Positions 2,347-23,637 of a stretch of 32,542 bases of DNA are shown here, piece by piece. How positions within the stretch are numbered: position 1 is the stretch's first letter; each line of letters starts with the position of its first letter. The DNA is from an uncultured Thiotrichales bacterium (GTDB lineage: Bacteria > Pseudomonadota > Gammaproteobacteria > CAZUMV01): NCBI GenBank assembly GCA_938041655.1, contig CALISW010000194.1:1-32542 (forward strand), given 5' to 3'. The notes beneath the pieces are model-generated. The model was not told the origin of the DNA. It did not search any database and saw nothing but the letters and a program-made list of their open reading frames with translations. The translations under genes and the position numbers were made by a program.

Positions 2347-2389
2347 GCAACATGTGTCGATTTGTATTTGGCATCGAGTGCATGTTGCT
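2346..2389. promoter_or_regulatory. Large dyad symmetry in the divergent intergenic region
   Basis: AGCAACATG (2346-2354) is a perfect inverted repeat of CATGTTGCT (2381-2389). Inside it, TCGAT (2357-2361) mirrors ATCGA (2373-2377). The dyad lies between the receptor -10 element and the upstream half of the shared motif, and 86 nt upstream of the AtoE-type gene. It may be an operator for a dimeric regulator serving both divergent genes. A cruciform or RNA role is less likely because no T-tract follows. Confidence 0.45.
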
Positions 2390-2403
2390 TGTACCAGAAT
2401 GAA
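2366..2403 (-). promoter_or_regulatory. Shared activator motif, copy C (left TonB receptor)
   Basis: On the minus strand TTCATTCTGGTACAAG occupies 2403-2388. A second half-site, CAAAT, starts at 2370, exactly 21 bp after the first CAAG (2391). The same arrangement occurs before the second TonB receptor and the amine dehydrogenase operon. The two direct half-sites, two helical turns apart and next to the -10 element, resemble AraC-family class II activation sites. The first half-site starts 108 nt from the receptor ATG. Confidence 0.6.
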
Positions 2404-2474
2404 CTTAAATGGATTAATTGTCCTGCATTTCATTTTAGATATTGATCATTTAATACTCACGTAGAGGCTGATAA

Positions 2475-3824
2475 ATGCTTGAAAAATTTAGTGCATGGAT
2501 TGTCAAGATTGTAGATAGGTATTTACCCGACCCGTTTGTATTTGCCATTCTCATGACTTTCATCGCCGCTGTGCTTGCGTTGTTATTGACTGATTCGACA
2601 CCTGTTGGTGTTTTGAGCGCATGGGGGGATGGCTTGTCTATGTTGCTTTCGTTTATTTCGCAGATGGCGCTAATGTTGTTGTTTGCTTATGCCATGTCGA
2701 GACTGGAGCCAATACCCACGCTATTGAACAAAATAGCTTCTCTTCCAAATACGCCCAGGGCTGCCTATATCACGGCAACTCTATTCACCGGTTTGGTGAG
2801 TTATTTTAGTTGGCCGCTTGGGTTGATTCTGGGTTCTTTGTTTGCTCGTTCACTAGGAATTTCGGCGCGAGCAAAAGGGCTTAAATTGCATTATCCATTA
2901 GTAGCAGCCGCAGCGTTTGCAGGTTTTATAGTGTGGCATATGGGCTACTCCGCCTCGGCGCCATTGTTTGTTGCTACAGAAGGGAATGCGATGCAGGAAC
3001 AGATGCAGGGTTTAATCCCGGTCAGTGAAACCATTTTCGCCGGTTGGAATATAGGCATCGCCATAGTCACTTTGATGATGGTTGCGATAACATCAGCATT
3101 GCTGCACCCCAAAAATGCAGATGAGATTGAGGAGTGTGAGCAGGGTGTGTATGACTCAGGTGACCTTGAGACTGAGCGAAGCGATCAAGGAGGGCTGGCC
3201 GACTGGGTTGAGCATAGTCGGATACCCGTCTTTTGCATGGGCTTGTTGATTTGTGCCTATTTAATGCACTGGTTCATTAGCAAAGGTCTGGTGATTGATT
3301 TGAATGTGGTCAACTGGAGTTTTTTGGCGATTGGATTGTTGCTGGCAAAATCCAGTGCGCAATATGCCAAAGCTTTTTATTCGGGCGCAAGGACTGCTGC
3401 TCCAGTGATGCTTCAGTATCCGTTTTACGGTGGCATTATGGGAATAATGCTTGGCACCGGAATTATTGCGAGCATTGTGCCGGTATTCACTCGTATTGCT
3501 ACTGAACATACTTTACCGGTGATTGCTTTTTTTCTTGGTGGTTTAATAAACTTTTTCATCCCATCTGGTGGTGCCCAGTGGGCGGTGCAGGGGCCTGCTT
3601 TTGTCGAAGCTGCTCAGGAACTCGGCACAGACTTACCGCTGGTAGTCATGGGTATCGCCTATGGTGATCAATGGACCAACATTATCCACCCGTTCACAGT
3701 CATTATTTTCGTTATCATTACCGAGCTAAAAGCACGACAAATCATCGCCTACACGGCGGTCATGTGGTTGGTTTCAACCTTGCCTTTAGCATTAGGGTTG
3801 TATTTCGCCAGCGCTTTAGGCTAG
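2475..3824 (+). CDS. atoE: AtoE-family short-chain fatty acid transporter
   Basis: Inner-membrane carrier of the AtoE (SCFA_trans) family, associated in Escherichia coli with short-chain fatty acid uptake. At 449 residues it has the usual family length. It shows the family's N-terminal pattern (RYLPDPFVFAILMTF), a QMALMLLFAYA helix, an SGGAQWAVQGP segment and AYGDQWTNIIHPF near the C-terminus, all of which line up with remembered E. coli AtoE. Around ten or more hydrophobic helices are visible, with a hydrophilic acidic loop near residues 215-245. An AGAGG ribosome site precedes the ATG. It is divergent from the TonB receptor and may share its regulatory region. The actual substrate here could be another carboxylate, for example an acid formed from an oxidised amine. 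Confidence 0.85.
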   Translation: MLEKFSAWIVKIVDRYLPDPFVFAILMTFIAAVLALLLTDSTPVGVLSAWGDGLSMLLSFISQMALMLLFAYAMSRLEPIPTLLNKIASLPNTPRAAYITATLFTGLVSYFSWPLGLILGSLFARSLGISARAKGLKLHYPLVAAAAFAGFIVWHMGYSASAPLFVATEGNAMQEQMQGLIPVSETIFAGWNIGIAIVTLMMVAITSALLHPKNADEIEECEQGVYDSGDLETERSDQGGLADWVEHSRIPVFCMGLLICAYLMHWFISKGLVIDLNVVNWSFLAIGLLLAKSSAQYAKAFYSGARTAAPVMLQYPFYGGIMGIMLGTGIIASIVPVFTRIATEHTLPVIAFFLGGLINFFIPSGGAQWAVQGPAFVEAAQELGTDLPLVVMGIAYGDQWTNIIHPFTVIIFVIITELKARQIIAYTAVMWLVSTLPLALGLYFASALG

Positions 3825-3844
3825 CTAAGCTTCCAAGATTTGAT

Positions 3845-4393: not shown

Positions 4394-4397
4394 CGGG

Positions 4398-6998
4398 TTA
4401 CTTCACGTGAAAGGTTTTGTTAGAGATTGCCCATTGGTCGTTGGCTTTTATCAGTGTGAAGTGAGTGATGAAATTCATGCCAAAAAAACCATTTTCGTTT
4501 AGCGTGGCGCGGGCGATAGTGCCATTGCTTTCTAGGTTGCGTAGCTCAGTGTTATAGCTGGCTTGTGAGGCAGGGCTGGCAGGATTTTGTTTTAAAAACT
4601 CGTAATAGGGTTCTGGTCCACCATTCAACAGATCTGGTCCCATATAGCCAACCATACTAGCCGCCGGATGAAACGCCTGTTCTAATATCTCAACGTCACT
4701 AGCTGCGGAGCCATCGATGTATTTCTGTATCGCTGCCTGTATGCCAGCCTCGTCAGTAGTTGTCTGGGTTGCTTCACCTTTAACAACAAACGATTTGTGC
4801 ACAATTGACCAAGTGTCGTTTTCATTAAGCAGCATAAAGTGGTTAGTAAAATCTTGGCCAAATAACCCGTCTTCGTCGAGTGTCACAATCGCTACATTGC
4901 CATTCACCTCGATGTTTCGAATGGTGGGTTTATAGCTCGCACGCATGGTGTCGTTTGGAGGGTTGTCGATTAATGCTGAGTAAAAGGGTTCGGGACCATC
5001 ACTCAATAGATCTCGCCCCATGTATCCCACCATGCGGGCCTTGGGGTGAAAGACTTTTTTCAGTAACTCGATGTCGCCTGTTTTTGTGCCTTCGATATAA
5101 TTTTCTACAACCTTTTGAACAGCGGCTTCAGCCGAATCTGAATTTGTGCTGGTCGCAGCAGTTTTTGTTGCCGCCGCAGTTGTGCTTGCCGCGGTATTGG
5201 TGCCTGGCAGTTCATTCACAACAGGGTTTCCACCAACCACAGACATAACAACTTTAGTATCGCCAACCGCCATAATATCAACCTCAAACAGGTTTTGATC
5301 TAGCACGATAAAGTCGGCATCTTTACCAGCTTCAATCGAGCCGGAAGAGTCACCTACCTTATTGGCGATTGCGCTGTTGTGGGTAAAGATTCTGATCGCT
5401 GTAGCAAGATCTACTGCTTCTTCAACAAATTCGGTTTTTAACTCAGCTTGATAGGGATCACTACGTGTCACCATGGCTTCTATACCGGGCCAGGGGTTTG
5501 CTGTAGGTACTACCGGCCAGTCCGATCCATAACTAACGACAGCGCCGGAGTCATAAAGAGTTTTGACTTGCCATTGAGGGATTCGATCGCCAAACCAGGC
5601 TTCCCATGTCAGGCCGGGTATCGGATACCAAATGATAGGACACATCTCTGCCACAACATTTAATTCTTTGAAGCGGGCAACATCATCTGGATGAATCATC
5701 TCTGCATGTGATACTTCGTGTATTACATCAGAGACTCCATTGGCCTCACGTGCCGCTTCAAATGCATCCAAAGCAGCACGCGCCGATCCATCACCTGTAG
5801 CATGTATTTTTATCGAAAGTCCTTGTTTGTCGAGTTCGACGACATCTTTAATTAACTGATCCGCTGGAATCATAAGCTCACCACGATGATCAGGTCCGAC
5901 TACATCGTTCGGCTCATAGGGATCGATAAGTGCCGAGGTATAAGTCATAGGCACGCCATCAAGCATGATCTTGACGAAGTCGGTATCGATCATCTCGTGT
6001 TTGAATTTATCGCGACTAGCAATCAAATCTTTTTCATGTTGATGTGATTTGGCCCAGGCACTTTTCCATGTCAGATTGGTTTTTACCCTGATTGGGAGTT
6101 GGCCGGTGTTTGCGAGTTCCTGATATGCCGCCATGTTCGAGTCAGTCACAATGGCATCTTTAATTGTGGTAATTCCATACTGTTTTATTTCGTTCATAGA
6201 CCAAAGCAAGGCATTGGTTTCTTCATCCAGGCTGTATGGAGGAAGTTCATGACGTTTACTGTATGCAGCGTTGTCATAGAGCAAGCCAGTAGCTTCTCCA
6301 GAATCAGCGTCTCGTTTAATAACGCCGCCAACTGGATCAGGCGTTTCGTTATCTACGTTGAAGCGGTTTAGTGCGTCGGAATTTACCCAGGCGTGGTGTA
6401 CCGACCAGTCCATCAGGAAGACCGGGTTGTTGGGAGCGATTTCGTCAAGAATTTCTTTTGGTTTTTTGGGGTTGTTGACGAAATAGCCTTCATTCCATTG
6501 GCCGCCTCTAATCCACTCGCCTGGAGCTGCTTCAGCAACGCAGCCTTTGAGGATTTCAAGAACCTCGTTTAGATCATTAGACAGAAAGCTGCACTCCAGA
6601 GTTCTGGATATACCGGCATCAGCAGGGTGGATGTGAGTGTCGTGTATACCGGGCATTAGCATGCGTCCACCCAGATCAACCATTTTGGTGGTAGCGCCAG
6701 CTAGTTTTAAGACCTCGTCATTACTGCCTACAGCGACGATCTTGCCGTCAGTTACAGCGATGGCTTCTGCCCAGCTATTGATGGCATCTACGGTATAGAC
6801 TTTTCCCTGGTGGTAAATGCTATCGGCGGATTCATCAATAATGATTGCATTGGTTTCTTGTTCTGTTGTACTTGTATTGTTAGATGCACTTGATGCAGCT
6901 ACATCGTTTCGTGCTTCGGGTGCAGTAGCATTATTATTGTTGTCACTGCAGGCTATGATGAGCATGGCGCTGGCTAGTACGAGAAATACGTTTTTCAT
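4398..6998 (-). CDS. Lipoprotein amidohydrolase (YtcJ/amidohydrolase_3-like) fused to two NTF2-like domains
   Basis: An 866-residue metal-dependent amidohydrolase anchored by lipidation; the signal ends IIAC with Cys17. The catalytic part, about residues 55-600, has the amidohydrolase_3 signatures. These are a metal-binding HIH at 122-124 after PGIHDT, an HATGDGS segment, an EVSHAEMIH segment and SYGSDWPVVPTANPW. A low-complexity Ala/Thr linker follows. Then come two tandem NTF2-like domains at about 622-741 and 750-866, each containing a FHP..MVGYMG.DLL..GPEP(F/Y)Y core. Single-domain YtcJ-like enzymes end near 550-600 residues, so the C-terminal pair is an addition. A GGGAG ribosome site precedes the ATG. 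A palindromic hairpin lies just upstream. It probably hydrolyses an amide or related bond in the periplasm or at a membrane surface; the substrate is unknown. Confidence 0.85.
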   Translation of the reverse strand: MKNVFLVLASAMLIIACSDNNNNATAPEARNDVAASSASNNTSTTEQETNAIIIDESADSIYHQGKVYTVDAINSWAEAIAVTDGKIVAVGSNDEVLKLAGATTKMVDLGGRMLMPGIHDTHIHPADAGISRTLECSFLSNDLNEVLEILKGCVAEAAPGEWIRGGQWNEGYFVNNPKKPKEILDEIAPNNPVFLMDWSVHHAWVNSDALNRFNVDNETPDPVGGVIKRDADSGEATGLLYDNAAYSKRHELPPYSLDEETNALLWSMNEIKQYGITTIKDAIVTDSNMAAYQELANTGQLPIRVKTNLTWKSAWAKSHQHEKDLIASRDKFKHEMIDTDFVKIMLDGVPMTYTSALIDPYEPNDVVGPDHRGELMIPADQLIKDVVELDKQGLSIKIHATGDGSARAALDAFEAAREANGVSDVIHEVSHAEMIHPDDVARFKELNVVAEMCPIIWYPIPGLTWEAWFGDRIPQWQVKTLYDSGAVVSYGSDWPVVPTANPWPGIEAMVTRSDPYQAELKTEFVEEAVDLATAIRIFTHNSAIANKVGDSSGSIEAGKDADFIVLDQNLFEVDIMAVGDTKVVMSVVGGNPVVNELPGTNTAASTTAAATKTAATSTNSDSAEAAVQKVVENYIEGTKTGDIELLKKVFHPKARMVGYMGRDLLSDGPEPFYSALIDNPPNDTMRASYKPTIRNIEVNGNVAIVTLDEDGLFGQDFTNHFMLLNENDTWSIVHKSFVVKGEATQTTTDEAGIQAAIQKYIDGSAASDVEILEQAFHPAASMVGYMGPDLLNGGPEPYYEFLKQNPASPASQASYNTELRNLESNGTIARATLNENGFFGMNFITHFTLIKANDQWAISNKTFHVK

Positions 6999-7017
6999 GA
7001 TTGGTCTCCCTTAGAAA

Positions 7018-7042: not shown

Positions 7043-7123
7043 ATAAGTTTACATGTTTTGTCTTGTTTGTGGGTGTCGAGGCATTGTACGAGTGCGAACT
7101 GCATTGCTGGTTCTAGTGGACGA

Positions 7124-7531
7124 TTAGTTAGTAGAATCCTGTTTTCTCTGTTCGAAATTGGCCAGCCAGCAGATCAGGTTTTTACGTTGATGCTCATCGC
7201 GAATACCGGCGAATGCCATACTGGTTCCGGATACGACTGTCATAGGTGCTTCAAGATAGGTGTTCAGGCTATCTTCGTCCCAGGTAATTTCAGCCTTTTC
7301 CATGGCTACACTATAAATGAACCCGGAAAGTGTCCCCGACTCTCTGCCGAACAGGCCTTTTAATGAAGGGCCCAATGGCGGGTTTTCTGTATCTGGTTGA
7401 CCATGACAGGCAGCACAAATTCCATAGACCTTTTTAGCTAGATCAATATCGCAAGTCTCAGCAGACAGCACAGAGGTGGTGAATGTCAGTGTTAATAGCG
7501 ACAAGCTTAATCTGAATAGTGTTGATTTCAT
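7124..7531 (-). CDS. Periplasmic class I cytochrome c
   Basis: Monohaem electron carrier of 135 residues. The signal peptide ends near VLSA (residue 24). The haem site is CAACH at 39-43, with His43 as proximal ligand. The likely distal ligand is Met105 in GTSMAFAG, a pattern typical of mitochondrial-type and c2-type cytochromes. Two further Cys residues (27 and 121) could form a disulfide. The ATG overlaps the stop of the unknown secreted gene by 4 nt (ATGA), and that gene is coupled the same way to a flavin amine oxidase. The three genes are therefore translationally linked, and the cytochrome is the natural electron acceptor candidate for the flavoenzyme. Cytochrome identity is certain; the partnership is inferred from context. 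Confidence 0.92.
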   Translation of the reverse strand: MKSTLFRLSLSLLTLTFTTSVLSAETCDIDLAKKVYGICAACHGQPDTENPPLGPSLKGLFGRESGTLSGFIYSVAMEKAEITWDEDSLNTYLEAPMTVVSGTSMAFAGIRDEHQRKNLICWLANFEQRKQDSTN

Positions 7532-8004
7532 TTTGATGTGCTGATCGAGCCAGAGCCGTTATCAGTGCCGAGGTATACAGTTTCACTAGCGCTGGGAAGA
7601 TAAGTAATATCAGTAGTGATTTCACCTGATGCATTGCTCCATTTCCCTGTGCCGCCGGTGATGGTGTATACATTTTTTTCGCCGCGTGTGCTAACGGTGA
7701 CATACAGGTGATGATCTTCGCTGTCTCGCCAGATGCATCTTCCGGTGCCGACGGTTCCTGCGCTGGAGCCAAGTTCATCAAAACCCAGACAGTCTATAGA
7801 AACCTTGACTGTGTTTTTTTTATCGTAGGATGTTAAGACCGAGGCGCCTTTAACCTCATAAACAAAAGCGCTGGATTTTTCTCCAGTGGTAATCGAAGGG
7901 CTGGCTGTAGCGTGAAACCCACCTGCCAAATTGTACGCTGTTGTTTCTGCGACTAGCACAGGGGTAAAGAGTGATAGTGTGAAAACAGCAATCAGATTTT
8001 TCAT
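7528..8004 (-). CDS. Secreted protein of unknown function between amine oxidase and cytochrome c
   Basis: I do not recognise this family with certainty. The product has 158 residues with a clear signal peptide (cleavage after PVLVA, about residue 19). The mature part is rich in beta strands and carries two Cys residues in a DCLGFDEL...GRCIW arrangement. A late YTITGGTGKWSNASGE segment loosely recalls the Gly-rich turn of allene oxide cyclase-like or dirigent-like beta barrels; that likeness is only suggestive. Both ends overlap neighbours by 4 nt: its ATG overlaps the stop of the flavin amine oxidase and its stop overlaps the start of the cytochrome c. This points to a role in the same periplasmic redox unit, such as substrate handling or complex assembly. 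Confidence 0.8.
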   Translation of the reverse strand: MKNLIAVFTLSLFTPVLVAETTAYNLAGGFHATASPSITTGEKSSAFVYEVKGASVLTSYDKKNTVKVSIDCLGFDELGSSAGTVGTGRCIWRDSEDHHLYVTVSTRGEKNVYTITGGTGKWSNASGEITTDITYLPSASETVYLGTDNGSGSISTSK

Positions 8005-9431
8005 GCAGTGGTTACTCCCAGTTTAGTGTGCACGGCTTGTGCTACCTGGGCTCCCGATTCAATCGCGCCATCTATGAAACCGCGCCAGCCATCGGCAATA
8101 TCAGCATTGGCAAACTGAATGTTACCTTCAGGGCGTTGTAGCTCAGCTAAAGCTGATGTCAGCATGCCTTTTGGATACATACACCAGGTACCTTTGGACC
8201 ATGGGTCAAGATTCCAGTCGTAACCGAATGTTTCCAGTACTTCTGCTTCTGGTAAATATTGTTTTACAGCAGCTTCTACAGCGATGGGGTTGTTGATATC
8301 CAACAAGTCAGGACTGGCACCAAAGCCACACAAGACCTGATCAGCTTCGTCAGCTGAGTCATATTCAGTCCAGAGAAAACACAACGGCATGTCTTGAGTG
8401 CCATTGCCAAAGAATTTTGGAAACTTGCCTTTGACCTTGGCATAAATTTTAGTACCTGAACCAGTGTGGCCTTCATTGAACGCGCTGGTTTTGACCGGGG
8501 AAAGTGCCGGGCTGAATTCAATGTCTTTGCACGTGTTTAATGGCACTGCCATGACCACTTGTTTGGCTTTAAATTGTTCCTCGCGATTGGTGGTTACAGT
8601 TACCGTGCCGTTGCTCTGGGAAACTTTAACAGCGGCTGAACCGAGTTTAGTGGTCGCTCTGTTGTCCGCCTGCATTTTATCTGCCAGAACTTTGGTGCCG
8701 CCTTTGAGTTTGAAGCGGCTGAGGTTATCCCACATTACCCATTTGTCATGTCCACCTAAAGCTACCCAGCGTAGTTGATCAAGATAGCTTGAGTTATACG
8801 AATTGGAGTGGCCATTGATGCAGGCAAACGCATGAAACAATTCTTTCTGTAGAGGGTTGAGATCGAGTGAGTCGATCACTTCACCAGCAGATTTCTGATC
8901 AAGTTGGTCTGTATCTGCAACTTTTAAAGGATCAAACGGATGAGGGTACTGAGCTCGCGATGGCGCGTAAAACTGGTCGTAGGCAGGGACCATCATGCCC
9001 CAGTAATCATCAGGGCTACCATTAACCGGATTACCATTTTCAAACCAGATGATTTCTTCAGAAGCCGCTGCGGCTGACTCTTCAACTTCAAGATCGTAAC
9101 GCATCTTTTCGGCCCACACCGAAGGTTGTCCTGAACCAAACCAGGTGCCACCCATATCAGTTTGGTGATCTGCAAATTGCGTGGTAAAGGTGCGACCACC
9201 AATGCGACCACGGGCATCAAGCATTAAGACATTGTGACCATTTCTGCTCAGGTCTCTGCTGGCCGTGAGGCCGGCAAAACCAGCACCAACTACAATGACG
9301 TCATACAAAGTTGATTCTGATGCGGTGTTATTCTCGAGGTTGGCAGGAGTGTCAGTTGGTGTTGCGCAAGCTGTTACAGCTCCGGTAGCAACGGTTGCAG
9401 CAGCGCCTTTAATAAACTCTCTTCTTTTCAT
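8001..9431 (-). CDS. Tat-exported flavin amine oxidase-family protein (probable lipoprotein)
   Basis: FAD-dependent oxidoreductase of the monoamine oxidase/amino_oxidase family, 476 residues. The N-terminus has a twin-arginine signal (KRREFIKG) followed by a VTAC lipobox at Cys22, predicting a folded, lipid-anchored periplasmic enzyme. The dinucleotide motif is GAGFAG at 49-54, followed by an acidic strand end (MLDARGRIGGRT) typical of the family, and TDMGGTWFG. The C-terminal FAD segment is GNIQFANADIADGWRGFIDGAIESG. Gene coupling to a cytochrome c suggests it acts as a dehydrogenase passing electrons to haem rather than to oxygen, as known for nicotine oxidoreductase NicA2. It lies 63 nt downstream of the UPF0261 gene. 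The substrate is probably a primary or secondary amine, unidentified. Confidence 0.88.
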   Translation of the reverse strand: MKRREFIKGAAATVATGAVTACATPTDTPANLENNTASESTLYDVIVVGAGFAGLTASRDLSRNGHNVLMLDARGRIGGRTFTTQFADHQTDMGGTWFGSGQPSVWAEKMRYDLEVEESAAAASEEIIWFENGNPVNGSPDDYWGMMVPAYDQFYAPSRAQYPHPFDPLKVADTDQLDQKSAGEVIDSLDLNPLQKELFHAFACINGHSNSYNSSYLDQLRWVALGGHDKWVMWDNLSRFKLKGGTKVLADKMQADNRATTKLGSAAVKVSQSNGTVTVTTNREEQFKAKQVVMAVPLNTCKDIEFSPALSPVKTSAFNEGHTGSGTKIYAKVKGKFPKFFGNGTQDMPLCFLWTEYDSADEADQVLCGFGASPDLLDINNPIAVEAAVKQYLPEAEVLETFGYDWNLDPWSKGTWCMYPKGMLTSALAELQRPEGNIQFANADIADGWRGFIDGAIESGAQVAQAVHTKLGVTTA

Positions 9432-9462
9432 GATGTTCCGCCTGATGTGAATTAACCCTCAA

Positions 9463-9492
9463 GCATTATTAAACGCTCTTGATTGATAATGC
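9463..9492. other. Weak inverted repeat upstream of the amine oxidase gene
   Basis: GCATTAT (9463-9469) mirrors ATAATGC (9486-9492) across a 16-nt loop, in the 63-nt gap between the UPF0261 gene and the amine oxidase gene. The pairing is AT-rich, so it may be chance, a weak attenuator or an operator. Confidence 0.2.
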
Positions 9493-9494
9493 AA

Positions 9495-12100: not shown

Positions 12101-12761
12101 GTGGTGCTCCGGTATTCAGTAATTTAATTAATAGGTTTTGTGCATTTGCATAACTGGCTTGCGGGTTTTGTACGTCAAACCAGACAGTGTTGAGATTTAC
12201 TTTATTAGCGCCTTCAATGTTTCGCATTTGGTCATCGACAAAGACGCAATCAGTGGCATCTTCGTTTAGTTCTGTGAGACACATTTCATAGGCTCGTGCT
12301 TCTGGTTTAAGGATGCCAGTGTGGGTTGCATCTACAATCACCTCAAACTCATTGAGTAAGGGCAGCTTGCTGCGAAATTCGCTGCCGTAAAAAAGATCAA
12401 GCTCATTGGAAAGGATGGCCAGGCGCACCTGGTTTTTTTTACACCAGGCTATGATTTTTTTTGCTTCAGGCCTGATCACCGCATCCGGATTCGCCCCACG
12501 AGCTGCAATGACAAATTCTGACATGTGCTGCCAGTTTTGATTTACCAGCGTTGCCACTTCGGCAGTGCGTGCTTCCCAGTAGTTTCTCTCGGTGATTTTA
12601 TTTTGTTGCATTTCTCGCCAGAGCGGGTCGTTTTCAGGGTCGAATGGGCCGAGCCAATTCAGCGTGCCCGGGCTTAAGCCCAGTGCTTCTTCAGTCAGCT
12701 TATGTGTTTCAAACAAAGTGCGGGAAATGACGCCACCAAAATCTAATACCAGCGTGGTCAC
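12093..12761 (-). CDS. HAD-superfamily hydrolase
   Basis: A 222-residue haloacid dehalogenase-like hydrolase. Motif I is LVLDFGGV with nucleophile Asp7; the usual second Asp is replaced by Gly, as in epoxide hydrolase-N or YihX-like members. Motif II is the LAILSNE region, motif III is the Lys in GILKPEARAYE, and motif IV is CVFVDDQ. A helical cap lies between motifs I and II. It probably acts as a small-molecule phosphatase or a relative. It starts with GTG sharing one base with the IclR stop (TAGTG), and its own end overlaps the aminotransferase start, so it is firmly in this operon. Its place in an amine pathway is unclear. Confidence 0.88.
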   Translation of the reverse strand: MTTLVLDFGGVISRTLFETHKLTEEALGLSPGTLNWLGPFDPENDPLWREMQQNKITERNYWEARTAEVATLVNQNWQHMSEFVIAARGANPDAVIRPEAKKIIAWCKKNQVRLAILSNELDLFYGSEFRSKLPLLNEFEVIVDATHTGILKPEARAYEMCLTELNEDATDCVFVDDQMRNIEGANKVNLNTVWFDVQNPQASYANAQNLLIKLLNTGAPHA

Positions 12762-15164: not shown

Positions 15165-16139
15165 ATGACTATGTATCAAAGCTATCCACTGACGGTTGCC
15201 AAAAAGGCGGAGCGATTTGACTATTTCAGCAGTCTTGTTGACGAGTTGTTCAGTCCCAGTCAGTGTGATTTAGTTAATACCAATGTTTCCGAATTCAATG
15301 GTGAGTTAGAGGCGACCGACCTGGGGCAGGTCAAGATTGCCAAGGTAGGAACTTCAGCATTAACGGTCAACCGCACCAAAAGCCATATTTCTCACCTCAC
15401 CGACGCTCCTTATCTGGTCAAATTTCAGTTACAGGGCGAATCCTTTTTTACCCAAAGAAATAACGAGATTCATTTAACCCCCGGTGACTTCGTGATCTGC
15501 ACTACAGCAGAACCTTACAAGCTGCAGTTCACCAGTGATTACCAGATGTCGGTCCTCGCCGTTGCCGAAACATCCATGAACCGATTAATGCGTAATCCCG
15601 ATAACCTGCTTGGCAAGTGTATGCCTGCGGCTGACCCGTGTTGCGGTTTGTTAAGTAGTTTCGTCAGCTCTGTTGTTGAAAAAATGGCTGATTTACCGGC
15701 GCCGATGGCAGAACGCGTTGAAACCAATATTCTGGATTTACTCGGTGGAGTGATTAACTCGCATGGTGAGCAAAAACAAAGTCATCGTCTCAGTGCTACT
15801 GAACAAGTAGAAACTATAAAAACATACATTAATGATAATCTTCGTAATAGAAGGCTGGGACCGGTCATGATCGCCGAAGCGATGGGTGTCAGTACGCGCT
15901 ATATTCACAAGATCTTTGCCAGTCAGCCAAAGACAGTGACACGTTACATTCGGACCAAACGTCTGGAAGGCTGTCACCGTATGTTGGCGCACTCAGATGC
16001 TGATTCATTGTCGATTACCGAAATTGCATTACATTGGGGTTTTTACGATTTATCCCATATGACCAGAGCTTTTAGTGAGCAATATCATATGGCGCCAAGT
16101 GTCTTCAGGGCTAAATCAATAGCACTAACGACACACTAG
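15165..16139 (+). CDS. AraC-family transcriptional activator (FeaR-like layout)
   Basis: A 324-residue regulator. The N-terminal cupin-like sensor resembles AraC_binding_2 domains, with VKFQLQGESFF and LTPGDFVICTTAEPYKLQF. The C-terminal double helix-turn-helix, about residues 220-315, contains MIAEAMGVSTRYIHKIF and ITEIALHWGFYDLSHMTRAF. This layout is shared with FeaR, the E. coli activator of phenylethylamine oxidation genes; the link is by architecture only. The stop lies 15 nt before the first half-site of a motif found upstream of both TonB receptors and the amine dehydrogenase operon, so this protein is the best candidate to bind it. An alternative start is the ATG at 15171. The ribosome site is weak. 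Confidence 0.9.
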   Translation: MTMYQSYPLTVAKKAERFDYFSSLVDELFSPSQCDLVNTNVSEFNGELEATDLGQVKIAKVGTSALTVNRTKSHISHLTDAPYLVKFQLQGESFFTQRNNEIHLTPGDFVICTTAEPYKLQFTSDYQMSVLAVAETSMNRLMRNPDNLLGKCMPAADPCCGLLSSFVSSVVEKMADLPAPMAERVETNILDLLGGVINSHGEQKQSHRLSATEQVETIKTYINDNLRNRRLGPVMIAEAMGVSTRYIHKIFASQPKTVTRYIRTKRLEGCHRMLAHSDADSLSITEIALHWGFYDLSHMTRAFSEQYHMAPSVFRAKSIALTTH

Positions 16140-16141
16140 AG

Positions 16142-16180
16142 TTCACTCTGATACAAGTCTCGAGCAAGTATTTGCAAGAT
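16142..16180 (+). promoter_or_regulatory. Shared activator motif, copy A (second TonB receptor)
   Basis: TTCACTCTGATACAAG is followed by direct CAAG repeats starting at 16154, 16165 and 16175, i.e. 11 and 10 bp apart, about one helical turn each. The outer pair has the same 21-bp spacing as copies B and C. A -10-like CACAAT lies at 16199-16204, 24 nt after the last half-site start. The receptor ATG is 104 nt from the first half-site. Confidence 0.6.
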
Positions 16181-16257
16181 TCCTGGTCAGAATAGAAGCA
16201 CAATGAAGTTGAGTAGTTAATAACAAGCTTGCAAGAGCTGCATACGGAGGAGTGGTT

Positions 16258-18645
16258 ATGAGTAGTTGTAATAGATTGAGGGGAGCTTTACTGGTGTTGT
16301 GTTTTGCACCATTGAGCTTGATGGCTGAGAGTGTCTTGGAAGAGATTACGGTAACAGCACAAAAGCGAGAGCAGAGTATTCAGGATGTTGGTATTGCCAT
16401 CAATGCTTTTTCTGGTGAGCAGATTAAAGCGTTGGGTATTACCAATACCGTAGATATCACACAGCAAATCCCGGGTTTGCAGGTGACTACATTTTCACCA
16501 AACTTAACTGCGTTTAATATTCGTGGTGTATCGCAGAATAACTTTACCGATAATCTGGAAGCGCCGATTGCGGTTTACATCGACGGTGCTTATGTTGCCA
16601 GTATGAACGCCATCAATGGTCAGTTGTTCGACGTTGAGCGTGTTGAAGCATTGAAAGGGCCACAAGGTACATTGTTCGGACGTAATGCGACCGGTGGTGT
16701 TATTCACTACATTACTAAAGCTGCCGATGAGGAAGAGTTAAATGGTTATGCTGAGGTTAGCGCTGCCGAATATGGCAAATTAGTCTTTGAAGGTGCGGTC
16801 GGAGGTTCATTCTCTGACACCGTTCGTTATCGTTTGTCAGCACGCCAGGAAGAATCTGATGGGTATATTGAATCTGCTAATTTTCCTGAAGGTAATCCTC
16901 TGCCAGCGAGTGGTATCGACCTTGGTGGTAGTGACGGTTACGCCATCCGTGCTGCACTTCAGTTCGATATTGGAGACTCGGGCACGTTTGATCTTAGCCT
17001 GAAGCATACTAAGGACGACGGCGTTCCAACGGGTGGCTACAGCTTTTTACCTTATGCCGACTTAAGTAATCCTGATGTATATATTCCACCAGAATTTGAG
17101 GATTTTGTAACTAACGTCATTGGTGCTCCTGCAGCGGCAACTGGCGATATTTTCTTCTGCCCCAGTCAGCTGGATTGTTTTACGCCAGTTGATAGTGCAG
17201 GACGTACTTTGTTTACCGGTGATCACCCAACTCCGTTTAATCACTTTTCTGATTATGAAGGCTTCATGGATCGTGAAACGAACAGTTTAACCGGTGAGTT
17301 TGATGTTGATTTAGACAATGGTATGAATCTGGTCTCTATCACCAACTTTATGGATCTGGATAAGTTCTACACTGAAGACGGTGACGGTATTCCAGTGCCG
17401 ATTATCGAATTTACGACGGTTTCTGACTACAGCCAGTTCTCACAGGAATTCAGATTGTCAGAGCAGTGTGACAACTTTAACTGGCAAGTGGGTTTGTACT
17501 ATCTTGATATGGAAACCGATGCAGACGTAATCACAGTGGGTGCTCCGGTTTCTGGTGTCGCAGCGAGTCTGGGCTTTGATCCAACAATGTTGACTGGCGC
17601 TCAAGTTGTACAGGACTACAACCTAACTTCTGAAAATATTTCAGTATTTGCTCAGGCTGAGTGGGATTTAAGCGATGCAACCACTTTAATCACTGGTTTG
17701 CGCTGGTCACAAGACGATAAGAAAATGGATTTTGCGACAGGTTTCCAAGCTGATACGGTTCCATTAATAACGTCATTTAATCTTGCAAACGCAATAGCGG
17801 CTGCGGGAGGCGGTGATCAGGATACTGTTGATTATAGCGACTTTGCTTTTCGTCTCGGATTGGATGTTCAGTTGAGCGATGAGACCTTGGCTTTCTTCTC
17901 GGTCAACCGTGGTATCAAAGGTGGTAACTTTGCGCCTTCTGCTGACGTGACATTAGATGGCATTAGGCATGATGAAGAAGTCTTGACGTCATATGAAGCT
18001 GGTCTTAAAACAGAGATCTTGGATGGCAAAGGTCGGTTAAATGCCACAGCATTTGTATATGACTATGATGATTATCAGGCTTTCACCTTTGCTGGCGGTA
18101 CACCTAGTGTTGCTAACGCTGATGCAGAAAACATCGGTCTTGAGCTGGAAGTATTCCTGACGCCAAATGACAACTGGGATGTTGTGCTTGGTGCATCCTT
18201 CCAGGAATCTGAAGTGAATAATGTACAGACGCCTCAGTTCCAGTTTACTCCGGTAGGTTTTCCGGTTGATTGGCCGGTAGACTTCCTGAATGGCGTTGAC
18301 CTTCCAAACACGCCTTCAGCTGCTTTGAATTACCTGTTTCGTTACAACACAGACATTGCTAATGGCAATATAGCATTACAGCTTGATGGTGCCTGGTACG
18401 ACGATCAGTTCCTTGAAGTGAGTAACGGTGGTGCGGCAGCGCAGGGCGCTTACAACACCAGTAATGCCAGTGTAACCTGGACCAGTGGTGATGACAGATG
18501 GCAAGTCACCGGTTGGGTCAAGAACCTGACGGATGAAGTGTACAAGCAGTACGCACTGGATCTGGGTATCCTTGGTGGTACGGTTGTATACGCTCCGCCA
18601 CGCTGGGCCGGTGTTAACGTCACTTACAAATGGGGCGCACAATAG
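16258..18645 (+). CDS. TonB-dependent receptor
   Basis: Outer-membrane active transporter of 795 residues. The ATG at 16258 is chosen because GGAGG at 16246-16250 gives 7-nt spacing; an in-frame GTG at 16252 would be only 1 nt from that site. A signal peptide ends near LSLMA, then the TonB box EEITVTAQKREQ, then a plug domain with FDVERVEALKGPQGTLFGRN. The beta-barrel runs to WAGVNVTYKWGAQ. The N-terminal 150 residues closely follow the receptor at the left edge, so they are diverged members of one family. It lies after the AraC gene, carries the shared activator motif upstream and is closed by a strong terminator, so it is a single-gene unit. The ligand is unknown. Confidence 0.95.
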   Translation: MSSCNRLRGALLVLCFAPLSLMAESVLEEITVTAQKREQSIQDVGIAINAFSGEQIKALGITNTVDITQQIPGLQVTTFSPNLTAFNIRGVSQNNFTDNLEAPIAVYIDGAYVASMNAINGQLFDVERVEALKGPQGTLFGRNATGGVIHYITKAADEEELNGYAEVSAAEYGKLVFEGAVGGSFSDTVRYRLSARQEESDGYIESANFPEGNPLPASGIDLGGSDGYAIRAALQFDIGDSGTFDLSLKHTKDDGVPTGGYSFLPYADLSNPDVYIPPEFEDFVTNVIGAPAAATGDIFFCPSQLDCFTPVDSAGRTLFTGDHPTPFNHFSDYEGFMDRETNSLTGEFDVDLDNGMNLVSITNFMDLDKFYTEDGDGIPVPIIEFTTVSDYSQFSQEFRLSEQCDNFNWQVGLYYLDMETDADVITVGAPVSGVAASLGFDPTMLTGAQVVQDYNLTSENISVFAQAEWDLSDATTLITGLRWSQDDKKMDFATGFQADTVPLITSFNLANAIAAAGGGDQDTVDYSDFAFRLGLDVQLSDETLAFFSVNRGIKGGNFAPSADVTLDGIRHDEEVLTSYEAGLKTEILDGKGRLNATAFVYDYDDYQAFTFAGGTPSVANADAENIGLELEVFLTPNDNWDVVLGASFQESEVNNVQTPQFQFTPVGFPVDWPVDFLNGVDLPNTPSAALNYLFRYNTDIANGNIALQLDGAWYDDQFLEVSNGGAAAQGAYNTSNASVTWTSGDDRWQVTGWVKNLTDEVYKQYALDLGILGGTVVYAPPRWAGVNVTYKWGAQ

Positions 18646-18708: not shown

Positions 18709-18773
18709 ATTAGTCAGAATTATTGTCATTTAATGCTTGTATGGTCAGCTGCTATCGCAGTATTGAGGTTAAT

Positions 18774-20474
18774 ATGTTGAATAAAGTTATGCGCATCATT
18801 GTTATTTGTCTTGCACTGTCATTACTGTTTGCTTGTGCTTCCGAGAATGTTGTTTCAAAGAGTGTCGATAAATCACAACCCAATATCCTGCTGATTCTCG
18901 TGGATGATATGGGCTATAGCGACATTGGAAGTTTTGGTGGTGAAATAGATACGCCCAACCTGGATGCGCTTGCTTACAACGGCACCCGGTTTACTAATTT
19001 CCACACGGCTTCTACTTGCTCACCCACCCGATCGATGTTGCTCAGTGGAGTTGATCATCATAAAGCCGGGTTGGGTAATATGTTGGAAGAGCTAAGTCCT
19101 AATCAAAAAGATCAGCCCGGTTATGAAGGTTATTTAAATGATCGAGTTGTGACAGTGGCGACCTTGTTAAAAGATGCGGGTTATTTTACTACCATGTCCG
19201 GTAAATGGCATTTGGGCCAGGGCGAAGGTTATCGTCCTTCTGATCGTGGTTTTGAAGATGCATTTTCTTTATTGGTGGGAGGGGCGAGTCATTTCGGTGA
19301 TATGCGTCCAGCGTACGCACCATCACCAGAGATAAAAGCAAAGTACGCTGAGAACGGTACCTTACTAGAGTCTTTGCCAGACGATTTTGAATATTCCTCA
19401 CAGTATTATGTTGATCGCATGATCACTTCGCTCGAGTCACGGGCTTCACGTGAGCAACCTTTCTTTGGCTATTTATCGTTTACTGCTCCGCACTGGCCGT
19501 TGCAGGCACCGGCGGCAAGCATCGAAAAGTATAAAGGCAATTACGCAGATGGTTATGACGTGTTGCTACAGCAGCGGCTGGCAAAATCGAAAGTACTGGG
19601 GGTTATTCCGGCAAGCGCAAATGCCAACAATGCACCGCCGGCTTATAAGCCATGGGATCAACTGGGCTCGGAGCGGAAGCAAATTGAAGAGCGTGCCATG
19701 GAAGTGTACGCAGCGATGATTGATGAAGTCGATGTGCAGACTGGACGTTTGATTAATTATCTGAAAAACAGTGGTGAGTTGGATAATACCGTTATCATCT
19801 TTATGTCGGATAACGGTGCCGAAGCACACGATCTGGACGAGACCTGGGATGCCAAGTTGTTTCCAGCAATTAGAAAAGTAATAGATGAGACGCATGACTT
19901 TAGTCTGGAGGCCATGGGTCATCCGGGGTCCTATGTATTGTATGGGCATGGCTGGGGGCGGGCAGGCTCGCCGGCATTTTCATTGTATAAAGCGTTTCCT
20001 ACAGAGGGGGGAACTCGAGTTGCCGCTTTTGCCTGGAACCCGAGGTGGGTGGCAAAAGGAAAATTACGCAATGAACTATTGTCCGTCAAAGATATAACAC
20101 CAACCTTGTTGGAGCTCGCCGGTGTCGAACATCCTGGTACTTCATATAAAGGAAAAGAGGTAGAGTCTATGACAGGCGTCTCGATGTTGCCTGTTTTGTC
20201 AGGCTCTGAAGCGTTGACGGATTATTCAACGCGAGTTTTGGGTGCTGAATTATTTGGTAAGCGCGCGATGCGACAAGGTGACTGGAAAATTGTTCATATG
20301 CCTGCGCCTTACAGTGACGAGGAATGGCATTTATACGATTTAGAATCTGATTTGGCAGAAAGCAAAAACCTGGCTGCAGTTGAGCCTGAAAAGTTTCAAC
20401 AGCTGTTGGGCTTATGGCAGGAATATTATGACGAGAATAATATAATCATCCCTGACTGGGTCAGCGGCTATTAA
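18774..20474 (+). CDS. Lipoprotein arylsulfatase (type I sulfatase)
   Basis: Sulfate-ester hydrolase of 566 residues from the ATG at 18774. This start has a GAGG ribosome site and directly yields a signal ending LLFAC (lipidated Cys21); in-frame upstream starts (TTG 18723, ATG 18741) would add a hydrophilic leader. Type I sulfatase signatures are DDMGYSDIG with metal ligands Asp44 and Asp45, and TASTCSPTRSMLLSG, where Cys82 of CSPTR is the residue converted to formylglycine. GKWHLG and IFMSDNGAEAHD complete the active site. It resembles Pseudomonas arylsulfatase around DHHKAGLGN. The enzyme that makes formylglycine is not in the window. It heads an operon with the SDR, PLP lyase-like and kinase genes, suggesting that desulfation releases an alcohol processed downstream. 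Confidence 0.93.
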   Translation: MLNKVMRIIVICLALSLLFACASENVVSKSVDKSQPNILLILVDDMGYSDIGSFGGEIDTPNLDALAYNGTRFTNFHTASTCSPTRSMLLSGVDHHKAGLGNMLEELSPNQKDQPGYEGYLNDRVVTVATLLKDAGYFTTMSGKWHLGQGEGYRPSDRGFEDAFSLLVGGASHFGDMRPAYAPSPEIKAKYAENGTLLESLPDDFEYSSQYYVDRMITSLESRASREQPFFGYLSFTAPHWPLQAPAASIEKYKGNYADGYDVLLQQRLAKSKVLGVIPASANANNAPPAYKPWDQLGSERKQIEERAMEVYAAMIDEVDVQTGRLINYLKNSGELDNTVIIFMSDNGAEAHDLDETWDAKLFPAIRKVIDETHDFSLEAMGHPGSYVLYGHGWGRAGSPAFSLYKAFPTEGGTRVAAFAWNPRWVAKGKLRNELLSVKDITPTLLELAGVEHPGTSYKGKEVESMTGVSMLPVLSGSEALTDYSTRVLGAELFGKRAMRQGDWKIVHMPAPYSDEEWHLYDLESDLAESKNLAAVEPEKFQQLLGLWQEYYDENNIIIPDWVSGY

Positions 20475-20483
20475 GGAGAGAGT

Positions 20484-21293
20484 ATGTTTGGAAAGCTAGA
20501 TAACAAGATTTGCATCATTACCGGTGCCGGTCAGGGCATTGGTGCGGGTATTGCTCGCGTGTTTGCAGAAGCAGGCGCTAAAGTCATGATCGCTACACGC
20601 ACCAAAGCCAGTGGTGAAGAAACCATGCAATCTATACTTGATGCTGGTGGTGAGGCTGCACTTTGCGCCGTTGATATAGGAACTCTAGAGAATGTTGAAA
20701 AGTCTGTAGAGCAAACGGTCGAGAAATGGGGTGGCGTGGATATCATGGTGCATAACGCGGCTTCTTTTCTAGGTGGCATGGTTTATGAGTATGATGAAGG
20801 TGATCTGGAAACCGTGCTCTCGGTAAACTTGAAGGCCTGCTTCCGTTATTCCAAAGCGTGCATCCCTCATTTCAGAAAGCGTGGTGGGGGTCGCTTGTTG
20901 TTTACCTCTTCGGTGACCGGGCCAAGAGTCGCCATGCCAGGCACTTCTTACTACGCTGCTTCCAAAGGTGGCATGAACGCGTTTATTCGCACTGCTTCAA
21001 TGGAGCTGGCGCGCGAAAATATTACCGTTAATGGAGTTGAGCCTGGTTACATACGTACCAAGGCGATGGAGCTGTTGGCCGATGAAGAAGGGCTGGCGCA
21101 AATGACCAAATATATACCAGCCGGTTATATGGGTAAGGCAGAAGATATCGCCTATGCCATGCTCTATCTTGCCAGCGATGAAGCAAGATACATTACGGGT
21201 CAAACCATTTGTGTTGACGGTGGTTCAACCTTGCCGGAGAGTCCGGTATTTCTGGAAGAGATGGATGGCATCAAGGAGCTTGCTGGTTCGTGA
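20484..21293 (+). CDS. Short-chain dehydrogenase/reductase
   Basis: Cytoplasmic classical SDR of 269 residues that interconverts an alcohol and a carbonyl using NAD(P). The cofactor motif is TGAGQGIG at 13-20, NAAS lies at 91-94, the catalytic Ser is in the TSS stretch at 141-143, and the YAASK motif gives Tyr157 and Lys161. GYIRTKAM and TGQTICVDGG follow as in FabG-like members. An AAGGAGAG ribosome site lies between the sulfatase stop and its ATG (9-nt gap), and its end overlaps the PLP enzyme start. It may oxidise the alcohol freed by the sulfatase or reduce an aldehyde formed by the lyase-like enzyme. The substrate is unknown. Confidence 0.93.
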   Translation: MFGKLDNKICIITGAGQGIGAGIARVFAEAGAKVMIATRTKASGEETMQSILDAGGEAALCAVDIGTLENVEKSVEQTVEKWGGVDIMVHNAASFLGGMVYEYDEGDLETVLSVNLKACFRYSKACIPHFRKRGGGRLLFTSSVTGPRVAMPGTSYYAASKGGMNAFIRTASMELARENITVNGVEPGYIRTKAMELLADEEGLAQMTKYIPAGYMGKAEDIAYAMLYLASDEARYITGQTICVDGGSTLPESPVFLEEMDGIKELAGS

Positions 21294-22570
21294 ACAAAAA
21301 TCAGGAGTTATTGGCGCGCAGGGAGCAATTACTCGGTACCGGTAATCCATTGTTCTACGAAGACCCTTTGCATCTGGTGAAGGGGGAGGGTGTCTGGTTG
21401 TACGATGCAGACGGGCGCAAGTATCTGGATTGTTATAACAATGTGCCTAGTGTGGGTCATTGTCATCCGCATGTGGTAGAGGCGTTGTGCGAACAAGCGA
21501 GAACTTTAAATATCCACACGCGTTACTTGCACGAAAATATTCTCGACTACGCCGAAAGATTATTACAGAAACTCGACCCGTCATTAGACAGGGTGATGCT
21601 AGCCTGTACAGGTAGTGAGGCAAATGAACAAGCCATGCGCATGGCGCGTCATTACACCGGTGGTACAGGTTTCATTTGCACCGACGCCAGTTATCACGGC
21701 AATACTTCATTGGTGGCGCAACTCAGTGCGATCTTTGAGCCCATAGAAGGCTATGCAGATTTTATTCGCATGGTTAAGTGGCCCGATTCCTATCGTTGTC
21801 TGGATGATCTGGAGGGTGAGGCGTTGGCTACCGCCTATGCTGATTGTGTAAAAGCAGCGATTGATTCCATGCATGAAGCTGGTATCAAACTAGCTGGCAT
21901 GTTGGTGTGCCCCATTTATGCGAACGAGGGATTGTCAGATGTATTGCCATCCTATTTGCAGCAAGCAGTAAAACACGTGCACGATGCAGGTGGCGTATTT
22001 ATCGCTGATGAAGTGCAATCTGCTTTTGGCCGTACTGGTACATTTTGGGGGCATGAGCAGGCCGGTGTGGTGCCCGATATTATGACGCTGGGTAAGCCCA
22101 TGGGTGCGGGTCATCCAATCTCGGGTGTGATCGCCAGATCAGAGATTATCGACGGTTACAGAAATGCAGCGATGTACTTTAATACCTTTGGTGGTAATCC
22201 GGTTTCTTGTGCCGCTGCCCTTGCCGTATTGGATGTTTTAGATCAGGAAAGCTTGGTGGAAAACGCAGCCGAAGTGGGTGACTATGTATTAAAAGGTTTT
22301 AAAGGTTTGCAAGACAAGCATGACATCATCGGTGATGTCAGAGGTTCGGGTTTGTTCTTTGGTATCGATATGGTCAAAGATCAAGCGACCAAAGAAGCGG
22401 CCCCGATTGAGACAAAAGCGTTGGTTAACAAAATGCGACATGCAGGTGTGTTAATGAGCAACATCGGCGCGCTGGATAATGTTTTAAAACTCAGGCCGCC
22501 ATTACCATTTTCAAAAGAGAACGCCGATTATTTGCTTGAGATACTGGACCAACAATTGAGTAGCCTATGA
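21290..22570 (+). CDS. Class III PLP enzyme, probable amino-alcohol phosphate phospho-lyase
   Basis: A 426-residue fold-type I PLP enzyme. The Schiff-base Lys269 is in TLGKPMGAGHP and Asp240 in FIADEVQSAFGRTG. Distinctive segments line up with remembered human ETNPPL (AGXT2L1), which eliminates phosphate and ammonia from phosphoethanolamine. They are YLDCYNNVPSVGHCHPHVVE, TRYLHENILDYAERL, YFNTFGGNPVSCA and IIGDVRGSGLFFGID. Plain omega-transaminases lack several of these. The start is a GTG whose last bases overlap the SDR stop (GTGA); the ATGA at its end overlaps an APH-fold kinase. The kinase/lyase pairing matches the known hydroxylysine kinase/phosphohydroxylysine lyase logic. An ordinary aminotransferase remains the alternative. 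Confidence 0.88.
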   Translation: MNKNQELLARREQLLGTGNPLFYEDPLHLVKGEGVWLYDADGRKYLDCYNNVPSVGHCHPHVVEALCEQARTLNIHTRYLHENILDYAERLLQKLDPSLDRVMLACTGSEANEQAMRMARHYTGGTGFICTDASYHGNTSLVAQLSAIFEPIEGYADFIRMVKWPDSYRCLDDLEGEALATAYADCVKAAIDSMHEAGIKLAGMLVCPIYANEGLSDVLPSYLQQAVKHVHDAGGVFIADEVQSAFGRTGTFWGHEQAGVVPDIMTLGKPMGAGHPISGVIARSEIIDGYRNAAMYFNTFGGNPVSCAAALAVLDVLDQESLVENAAEVGDYVLKGFKGLQDKHDIIGDVRGSGLFFGIDMVKDQATKEAAPIETKALVNKMRHAGVLMSNIGALDNVLKLRPPLPFSKENADYLLEILDQQLSSL

Positions 22571-23592
22571 GTGCAGCACAATACTTTTCGCTAAAGCCCG
22601 AACAGCAGCTGGAGTTGTTAACTAAGGCCGCTCATGCTTCTTTGCCCCATTGGTCGTTAGACGGCGCGCAACTGGAGCTTATCAAATTTCGTGAGAACGC
22701 AGTCTTTGCTGTTAATGCATCTGGCAAAAAAGTTGCACTGCGCGTACATCGTCTTGGCTACCATAGTAATCCTGCTTTGCAATCAGAATTGCAATGGATG
22801 CGCGCGCTGTCAGACAGCGGTATAGAAACACCCGTTGTAATACCGGCGCAAAACGGAGAGCTTTTTATTGAGCAAGCTCTGGAAGGGCTTTCTGCCAAGG
22901 TGCAGATCGATCTTTTCGAATGGATAGAGGGTGAGCAACTCGGGTCTGTTGAAGAAGGTGTGACAGATACTGCCAGCGTCAGTGCCTCATATTATTCAAT
23001 CGGTGAGCTGGCCGCTAAAGTGCACAATCAATCCAGTAGCTGGGAGTTGCCTGAAGACTTTACGCGTCACGCCTGGGATGAAGTTGGTTTGGCTGGCGAA
23101 CAGCCTTTGTGGGGTCGGTTTTGGGAAATAGAGCAAGCTAGCGATGCGCAAAGAGCGCTGTTAATAAAAGGTCGGGATCACGTGCTAAAAGCACTGTCAG
23201 CGTTGCCAAAAACGCGAAACGACTACGGCATGATTCATGCTGACCTGGTGACAGAAAATGTCATGGTTGATGATGGCAATGTAAAACTGATTGATTTCGA
23301 TGACGCCGGGTTTGGCTGGCATTTATTCGAGATTGCCACTGCTTTGTATTTTATTATCGATGAGCCGTATTACCAAAGCGCCCACGATGCCTTGCTGGAA
23401 GGCTATCGCAAACATCGTGAGCTCACGGATGCGCAGCTGGAACTATTGCCGTTGTTTTACCTGGCGCGTGCCTTCACCTATGTGGGCTGGGTTCATACTC
23501 GTCCGGAAACAGAGACGGCGTTAGAGTTAACCCCGGTGTTACTGGAGATGGCGTGTAAGCAAGTTAATCATTACTTTAAGAAGAGTCAATAA
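22567..23592 (+). CDS. APH-fold small-molecule kinase (hydroxylysine kinase-like)
   Basis: A 341-residue member of the aminoglycoside phosphotransferase/choline kinase-like family. The catalytic loop is YGMIHADLVTEN, giving Asp226 and Asn231. The metal-binding LIDFDDAGFGWHLFEIA has Asp243. The N-lobe has FRENAVFAV and a Lys/Arg-bearing KKVALRVHRLGYH strand. The family phosphorylates hydroxyl groups of small alcohols and amino alcohols. The ATG overlaps the stop of the phospho-lyase-like gene (ATGA), so the two are made together. The likely sequence is kinase phosphorylating an amino alcohol and the PLP enzyme then eliminating phosphate and ammonia to give an aldehyde. Resistance to an aminoglycoside is unlikely in this setting. 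Confidence 0.88.
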   Translation: MSAAQYFSLKPEQQLELLTKAAHASLPHWSLDGAQLELIKFRENAVFAVNASGKKVALRVHRLGYHSNPALQSELQWMRALSDSGIETPVVIPAQNGELFIEQALEGLSAKVQIDLFEWIEGEQLGSVEEGVTDTASVSASYYSIGELAAKVHNQSSSWELPEDFTRHAWDEVGLAGEQPLWGRFWEIEQASDAQRALLIKGRDHVLKALSALPKTRNDYGMIHADLVTENVMVDDGNVKLIDFDDAGFGWHLFEIATALYFIIDEPYYQSAHDALLEGYRKHRELTDAQLELLPLFYLARAFTYVGWVHTRPETETALELTPVLLEMACKQVNHYFKKSQ

Positions 23593-23597
23593 ATCAG

Positions 23598-23637
23598 GTT
23601 CATTCTCATACAAGTCCATTACACCGTCTGGCAAGAC
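23598..23637 (+). promoter_or_regulatory. Shared activator motif, copy B (amine dehydrogenase operon)
   Basis: TTCATTCTCATACAAG, with half-sites CAAGTC at 23611 and CAAGAC at 23632, lies 85 nt before the aldehyde dehydrogenase ATG. The spacing of 21 bp equals that in copies A and C. Copies A and B also share a further TGGTC(A/T)GAATA stretch downstream. CAAGTC (23611-23616) and GACTTG (23635-23640) form an inverted repeat as well. A -10-like GAGAAT lies at 23657-23662. Confidence 0.6.

What the first reader, a model, noticed from the sequence alone, without database searches (positions are those of the whole stretch)
2366..23637. One 21-bp-spaced motif upstream of two TonB receptors and the amine dehydrogenase operon
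Three copies were found by eye: minus strand 2403-2366, plus strand 16142-16180, plus strand 23598-23637. Each has TTCA(C/T)TCT, then TACAAG, then a second CAA(G/A) exactly 21 bp after the first. A -10-like hexamer starts 24-25 nt after the second half-site in each case (TATACT, CACAAT, GAGAAT). Direct half-sites two helical turns apart are typical of AraC-family activators, and an AraC-family gene (15165-16139) ends 15 nt before the first half-site of the second copy. This defines a small regulon joining outer-membrane uptake with periplasmic amine oxidation, which suggests that the receptors import the amine substrate or a precursor.
Basis: partly seen in the sequence, partly recalled or inferred. 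Interest (0 to 1): 0.82.

Follow-up and report, generated by a model that had tools for sequence, protein, structure and literature searches.

The report
FeaR-type switch for amine uptake, oxidation
Three copies of a 38-base control site, found nowhere else in this genome, have the same two-part layout as the sites of E. coli's aromatic-amine regulator FeaR, so one FeaR-like protein probably switches on two outer-membrane receptors together with a periplasmic amine-oxidizing enzyme.

Summary
Three exact copies of GTTCAYTCTNNTACAAG plus a second CAAR 21 bp downstream lie before TBDR1, TBDR2 and the ALDH/aromatic amine dehydrogenase operon. They are the only exact copies in the 2.93-Mb genome, and no other genome of 369 in the class has an exact copy. 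Each site is a direct repeat of NNNCA-N8-CAAR, 21 bp apart, and the downstream half overlaps the expected -35. The same tandem at exactly 21 bp lies in E. coli feaB and tynA, Klebsiella feaB and Pseudomonas tynA promoters, next to FeaR genes. The AraC-family protein at 15165-16139 is FeaR-like (best NCBIfam model FeaR, but below cutoff) and is one of only two proteins with this N-terminal domain found in the genome. It is therefore most likely the activator. A weaker fourth site precedes the amidohydrolase gene. The downstream genes include an AADH-type TTQ dehydrogenase, a phenylacetaldehyde-dehydrogenase-like ALDH, an amino-alcohol kinase/phospholyase pair and an AtsA-like arylsulfatase. That the receptors import the amine or a sulfated/hydroxylated precursor is plausible but unproved. 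Conservation could not be tested: no held relative has the regulator. This is a FeaR-like regulon with an unusual membership.

The parts
2367..2404 (-). Site 1: tandem GTTCA-N8-CAAG / ATGCA-N8-CAAA, 21 bp apart, upstream of TBDR1
2341..2346 (-). -10-like TATACT, 24 nt from the second CAA
1..2283 (-). TBDR1, TonB-dependent receptor-like ORF, cut by the contig end
   Evidence: ORF; 28% identity to TBDR2, which is a Pfam-confirmed receptor
16141..16178 (+). Site 2: tandem GTTCA-N8-CAAG / GAGCA-N8-CAAG, directly after the regulator's stop codon, upstream of TBDR2
16199..16204 (+). -10-like CACAAT
15165..16139 (+). FeaR-like AraC-family regulator (PF14525 + HTH_18), 42 nt downstream of an aldehyde dehydrogenase gene (13632-15122)
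16252..18645 (+). TBDR2, TonB-dependent receptor (a more likely start codon is ATG 16258)
18723..20474 (+). Arylsulfatase, closest to PDB 1hdh (P. aeruginosa arylsulfatase)
20484..21293 (+). Short-chain dehydrogenase
21290..22570 (+). Class-III PLP enzyme, closest to phospholyases (5g4i; ethanolamine-phosphate phospho-lyase 6tor)
22567..23592 (+). APH-fold small-molecule kinase, closest to 6ef6
23598..23635 (+). Site 3: tandem GTTCA-N8-CAAG / TTACA-N8-CAAG, upstream of the ALDH-AADH operon
23657..23662 (+). -10-like GAGAAT (a stronger TATACT lies about 15 nt further down)
23696..25114 (+). Aldehyde dehydrogenase, aminobutyraldehyde/phenylacetaldehyde dehydrogenase-like
25127..26500 (+). Aromatic amine dehydrogenase heavy chain
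26512..27030 (+). Aromatic amine dehydrogenase light chain (TTQ subunit)
27031..27486 (+). c-type cytochrome-like protein (CQGCH haem motif; no Pfam hit), recurrent next to the light chain in relatives
30899..32047 (+). MauE and MauD-like TTQ maturation genes
7062..7099 (-). Candidate site 4 (GTTCG-N8-CAAT / CGACA-N8-CAAG), weaker, upstream of the amidohydrolase gene 4398-6998

Best explanation
The motif is the operator of the FeaR-like AraC/XylS-family activator encoded at 15165-16139. Each operator is a 38-bp tandem of two direct half-sites (NNNCA-N8-CAAR) 21 bp apart. The two helix-turn-helix motifs of each protomer would read the CA box and the CAAR box. The downstream half overlaps the -35 position, so two protomers bound on one DNA face would recruit RNA polymerase (class II activation). 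With the inducer, probably an aromatic amine or its aldehyde, the protein would switch on TBDR1, the TBDR2-sulfatase-SDR-phospholyase-kinase operon and the ALDH-AADH-mau operon together, and perhaps the amidohydrolase gene. Shown here: the sites, their uniqueness, their identical geometry to FeaR-linked promoters, and the regulator's family. Inferred: binding, activation, inducer and the receptors' substrate.
For: Exact copies occur only here in the genome, and the held-out site always outranks non-sites. Similarity is confined to the half-sites, so the copies are not simple local duplications. The tandem NNNCA-N8-(A/C)AA at exactly 21 bp is in E. coli feaB and tynA, Klebsiella feaB and Pseudomonas tynA promoters and in all three window promoters; among spacings 15-30 only 21 recurs, and the chance per promoter is 0.005 or less. 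The -10 distance is 24 nt in E. coli feaB, Klebsiella feaB, TBDR1 and TBDR2, and 25 at ALDH. The regulator's best NCBIfam model is FeaR (164 bits against 71 for the next), with 26% identity to E. coli FeaR. It is one of two PF14525 proteins found in the genome. It lies beside site 2 and in the same cluster as the targets. XylS has the same layout, two direct repeats with the second overlapping -35 by two bases (PMC4225500; PMC5481539).
Against: The regulator scores below the curated FeaR cutoff (164 against 199), and the FeaR model also scores regulators beside aldoxime and styrene genes at 134-169 bits, so family membership does not fix the inducer. No relative carrying the regulator was found, so conservation of the sites is untested. 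Eleven other AraC-type HTH proteins were found in the genome. The -10 elements of sites 2 and 3 are weak, and site 3 has a better TATACT about 15 nt further down.
Confidence: 0.82

Rival explanations
1. The sites belong to another AraC/XylS-family regulator of the genome, for instance the paralogue beside the aldoxime dehydratase-like gene on contig 143 or a regulator in the missing part of the genome, and the neighbouring FeaR-like gene is a bystander.
For: 12 AraC-type HTH proteins were found in the genome, a second PF14525 protein exists, and the genome is about 85% complete.
Against: The neighbour has the right family and lies directly before one site. All exact sites are in this one contig. 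The paralogue's surroundings (L017) hold no such tandem.
Confidence: 0.1
2. The sites are real but repress rather than activate, or serve mixed roles, for example with site 1 also controlling the divergent short-chain fatty-acid transporter gene at 2475.
For: Site 1 lies in a divergent intergenic region. Some AraC-family proteins both repress and activate (established knowledge).
Against: The downstream half-site overlaps -35 in the position of class II activators such as XylS, and the -35 regions are poor matches to TTGACA, as expected of activator-dependent promoters.
Confidence: 0.07
3. Chance or duplication: similar promoter stretches copied locally, with no regulatory meaning.
For: All copies are in one 21-kb region.
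Against: Conservation stops outside the half-sites. Exact copies elsewhere in the genome are zero. The geometry matches independent FeaR promoters.
Confidence: 0.01

Closest known systems
E. coli FeaR regulon (feaR, feaB, tynA)
   Same: AraC-family regulator; tandem NNNCA-N8-MAA half-sites 21 bp apart; same -10 distance at feaB; controls amine oxidation plus aldehyde dehydrogenase
   Different: Half-site letters differ (GTTCA...CAAG against TGNCA...AAA). The amine oxidizer is a TTQ dehydrogenase rather than the copper amine oxidase TynA. TonB receptors, a sulfatase and kinase/phospholyase genes carry the site. The protein is only 26% identical and below the FeaR model cutoff.
XylS/Pm of Pseudomonas TOL plasmid
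   Same: Two direct repeats of TGCA-N6-GGNTA, second overlapping -35 by two bases (PMC4225500, PMC5481539)
   Different: Different box B, inducer and targets
Aromatic amine dehydrogenase (aau) clusters
   Same: Heavy and light chain, MauD/E-like maturation genes, cytochrome-like partner; best PDB matches are AADH
   Different: Preceded by an ALDH gene and a FeaR-type site; none of the 10 other AADH-bearing genomes examined has the regulator or the motif near it

Membership tests
FeaR (NCBIfam NF007243 equivalog) | Protein score above the curated cutoff of 199 bits | tested here: not met
   164 bits; best model all the same, next model 71 bits
FeaR-like / AraC-XylS family with AraC_binding_2 domain | PF14525 N-terminal plus HTH_18 C-terminal domain above Pfam cutoffs | tested here: met
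   57.4 and 63.8 bits against cutoffs 27 and 33.6
FeaR/XylS-type operator | Two direct half-sites 21 bp apart, each with a 5' CA box and a 3' box | tested here: met
   All three sites, same tandem as at four FeaR-linked promoters
FeaR/XylS-type operator | Downstream half overlaps the -35 position | tested here: met
   -10-like hexamers 24-25 nt from the second CAA put a 17-nt-spaced -35 over its last 2-3 bases; transcription starts not mapped
FeaR/XylS-type operator | Bound by the cognate regulator | not testable with these tools
   Needs EMSA or footprinting
FeaR regulon | Induction by aromatic amine or its aldehyde | not testable with these tools
   Needs expression data
Aromatic amine dehydrogenase | TTQ-type light chain and heavy chain closer to AADH than to methylamine dehydrogenase | tested here: met
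   Light chain 164 bits to AADH, at most 157 to MADH (a small margin); heavy chain 176 against 107

The most novel reading that the evidence does not exclude
A FeaR-type regulator has recruited TonB-dependent outer-membrane receptors, so that the cell actively imports a bulky or sulfated aromatic (hydroxy)amine, removes the sulfate, and feeds two converging branches, TTQ dehydrogenase for the amine and kinase/phospholyase for the beta-hydroxy amine, to one aldehyde dehydrogenase and the phenylacetate pathway.
Probability: 0.22. Interest if true: 0.65.

Novelty: new variant of a known kind. Interest (0 to 1): 0.47.

Why it matters
TonB-dependent receptors are numerous in many bacteria and mostly lack known substrates. 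A shared operator that ties two of them to a defined periplasmic amine-oxidation pathway gives a concrete, testable substrate class. It also offers a regulator and operator for a TTQ aromatic amine dehydrogenase operon; a text search of the open library found no paper that names both TonB-dependent proteins and aromatic amine dehydrogenase.

Tried and rejected
Conservation test: the regulator has no close relative in the genome-contig scan, in the order or family (3 genomes held), in 369 genomes of the class or in 399 of the phylum. AADH loci of 10 other genomes have neither the regulator nor the motif nearby, so they cannot test it. Two 1-mismatch tandem hits in other genomes lie inside open coding frames and look like chance. 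The 1-mismatch copy on contig 117 (L004) does not score as a full site and stands by a terminator-like sequence. Four distant FeaR-model relatives on plasmids (L069, L071, L075, L076) show no strict tandem in the gaps checked, so the layout is not universal in this wider family at this strictness. No homogentisate dioxygenase was found, but PaaA/PaaC-type genes were, which favours a phenylacetate end-route. The original FeaR binding-site paper is not in the library; the TGNCA-N8-AAA consensus is from memory and was checked only by its presence in the E. coli promoters.

Full report
Observation. The three motif copies are real and at the stated places. In full, each is a 38-bp element: GTTCA-N8-CAAG-N4-NNNCA-N8-CAAR. 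The first half is nearly invariant (GTTCAYTCTNNTACAAG) and the second keeps only CA and CAA. Shuffled windows give 0.16 matches at up to 3 mismatches against 4 found. In the 2.93-Mb genome the only exact copies are these three, with none for the reversed pattern, and at 3 mismatches the rest of the genome is at the control level. A weight matrix from any two sites ranks the third above all non-sites of the window. One detail is wrong: site 2 starts within 2 nt of the regulator's stop codon, not 15.

Fourth site. The best non-site in the window is 7099-7062 (-), score 13.9, in the gap before the amidohydrolase gene. Simulated DNA gives 1.17 such scores per Mb and strand, so about 0.0025 are expected in the 1079 intergenic bases. 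It is probably a weaker member of the set, but was found after the fact.

What reads it. The gene at 15165-16139 has AraC_binding_2 and HTH_18 domains. Its best curated model is FeaR, 164 bits against a cutoff of 199, with the next model at 71. The FeaR model also scores regulators beside aldoxime dehydratase or styrene genes at 134-169 bits, so it is FeaR-like rather than FeaR. Only two proteins with this N-terminal domain were found in the genome, against twelve AraC-type HTH domains.

Comparison with FeaR promoters. E. coli feaB has TGTCA-N8-AAA twice, 21 bp apart, and tynA has TGGCA-N8-AAA and TGGCA-N8-CAA, 21 bp apart. Klebsiella feaB and a Pseudomonas tynA beside feaR have the same tandem. 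Scanning spacings 15-30 in these four promoters and the three window promoters, 21 is found in all seven and no other spacing recurs; the chance per promoter is at most 0.005. The -10-like hexamer is 24 nt from the second (C/A)AA in E. coli feaB, Klebsiella feaB, TBDR1 and TBDR2, 25 at the ALDH promoter and 22 at E. coli tynA. No convincing -10 is visible at the Pseudomonas promoter. With a 17-nt spacer the -35 would overlap the downstream half-site by 2-3 bases. XylS at Pm has the same arrangement: two direct repeats TGCA-N6-GGNTA, the second overlapping -35 by two bases, an overlap essential for initiation (PMC4225500). FeaR controls tynA and feaB in E. coli (PMC4640556).

What it controls. 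Site 1: TBDR1, cut by the contig end. Site 2: TBDR2, an arylsulfatase (517 bits to 1hdh), an SDR, a phospholyase-like PLP enzyme (403 bits to 5g4i, 349 to ethanolamine-phosphate phospho-lyase 6tor) and an APH-fold kinase whose best structure is 6ef6 (157 bits; from memory, 6ef6 is an aminopropanol kinase). Site 3: ALDH with phenylacetaldehyde/aminobutyraldehyde dehydrogenase affinities, then AADH heavy and light chains, a cytochrome-like protein, MFS, PhyH, aminotransferase, MauE and MauD. PaaA/PaaC-type genes of phenylacetyl-CoA epoxidation are in the genome, and no homogentisate dioxygenase was found. Amine oxidation and kinase-phospholyase chemistry both yield aldehydes from (hydroxy)amines, so convergence on one ALDH is chemically reasonable. 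This is inference.

Limits. Conservation, the usual test, is not available: no held relative has the regulator, and ten other genomes with AADH lack both regulator and motif nearby. In one of them a receptor-like stretch lies directly before the AADH heavy chain (L033), the only hint that the receptor link recurs. Binding, activation, inducer and receptor substrates need experiments.

Verdict. The feature is real and is best read as the operator set of a FeaR-like activator, confidence 0.82. The mechanism is of a known kind; the membership (two TonB receptors and a TTQ dehydrogenase under one FeaR-type operator) is the new part.

Noticed in passing
window 25127-25450: The AADH heavy chain begins MQKLIYIVGVLALITLFGC, a lipobox-like signal, followed by an acidic linker with an internal repeat (GAEAVEEVAAADMENSGTEAVKEVAAAD); it may be a membrane-anchored lipoprotein.
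   Followed up: no
L017 (G000 contig 143) and L016 (G001 contig 25): A paralogous FeaR-like regulator sits beside an aldoxime dehydratase-like gene and a nitrilase-like fragment in this genome and in its sister species; an Acinetobacter plasmid (L069) has a similar grouping.
   Followed up: partly
L033 17254-19676, also L035 and L038 (G122): One relative carries three AADH loci; in one a TonB-receptor-like stretch directly precedes the heavy-chain gene.
   Followed up: partly
window 4398-6998: Amidohydrolase fused to two SnoaL/lumazine-binding-like domains, followed by a separate SnoaL-like gene; candidate site 4 lies upstream.
   Followed up: partly
window 7124-13528 (-): A second amine-related gene run (IclR regulator, HAD, aminotransferase, UPF0261, flavin amine oxidase with Tat-like signal, cytochrome c) without the motif at its IclR end.
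   Followed up: no
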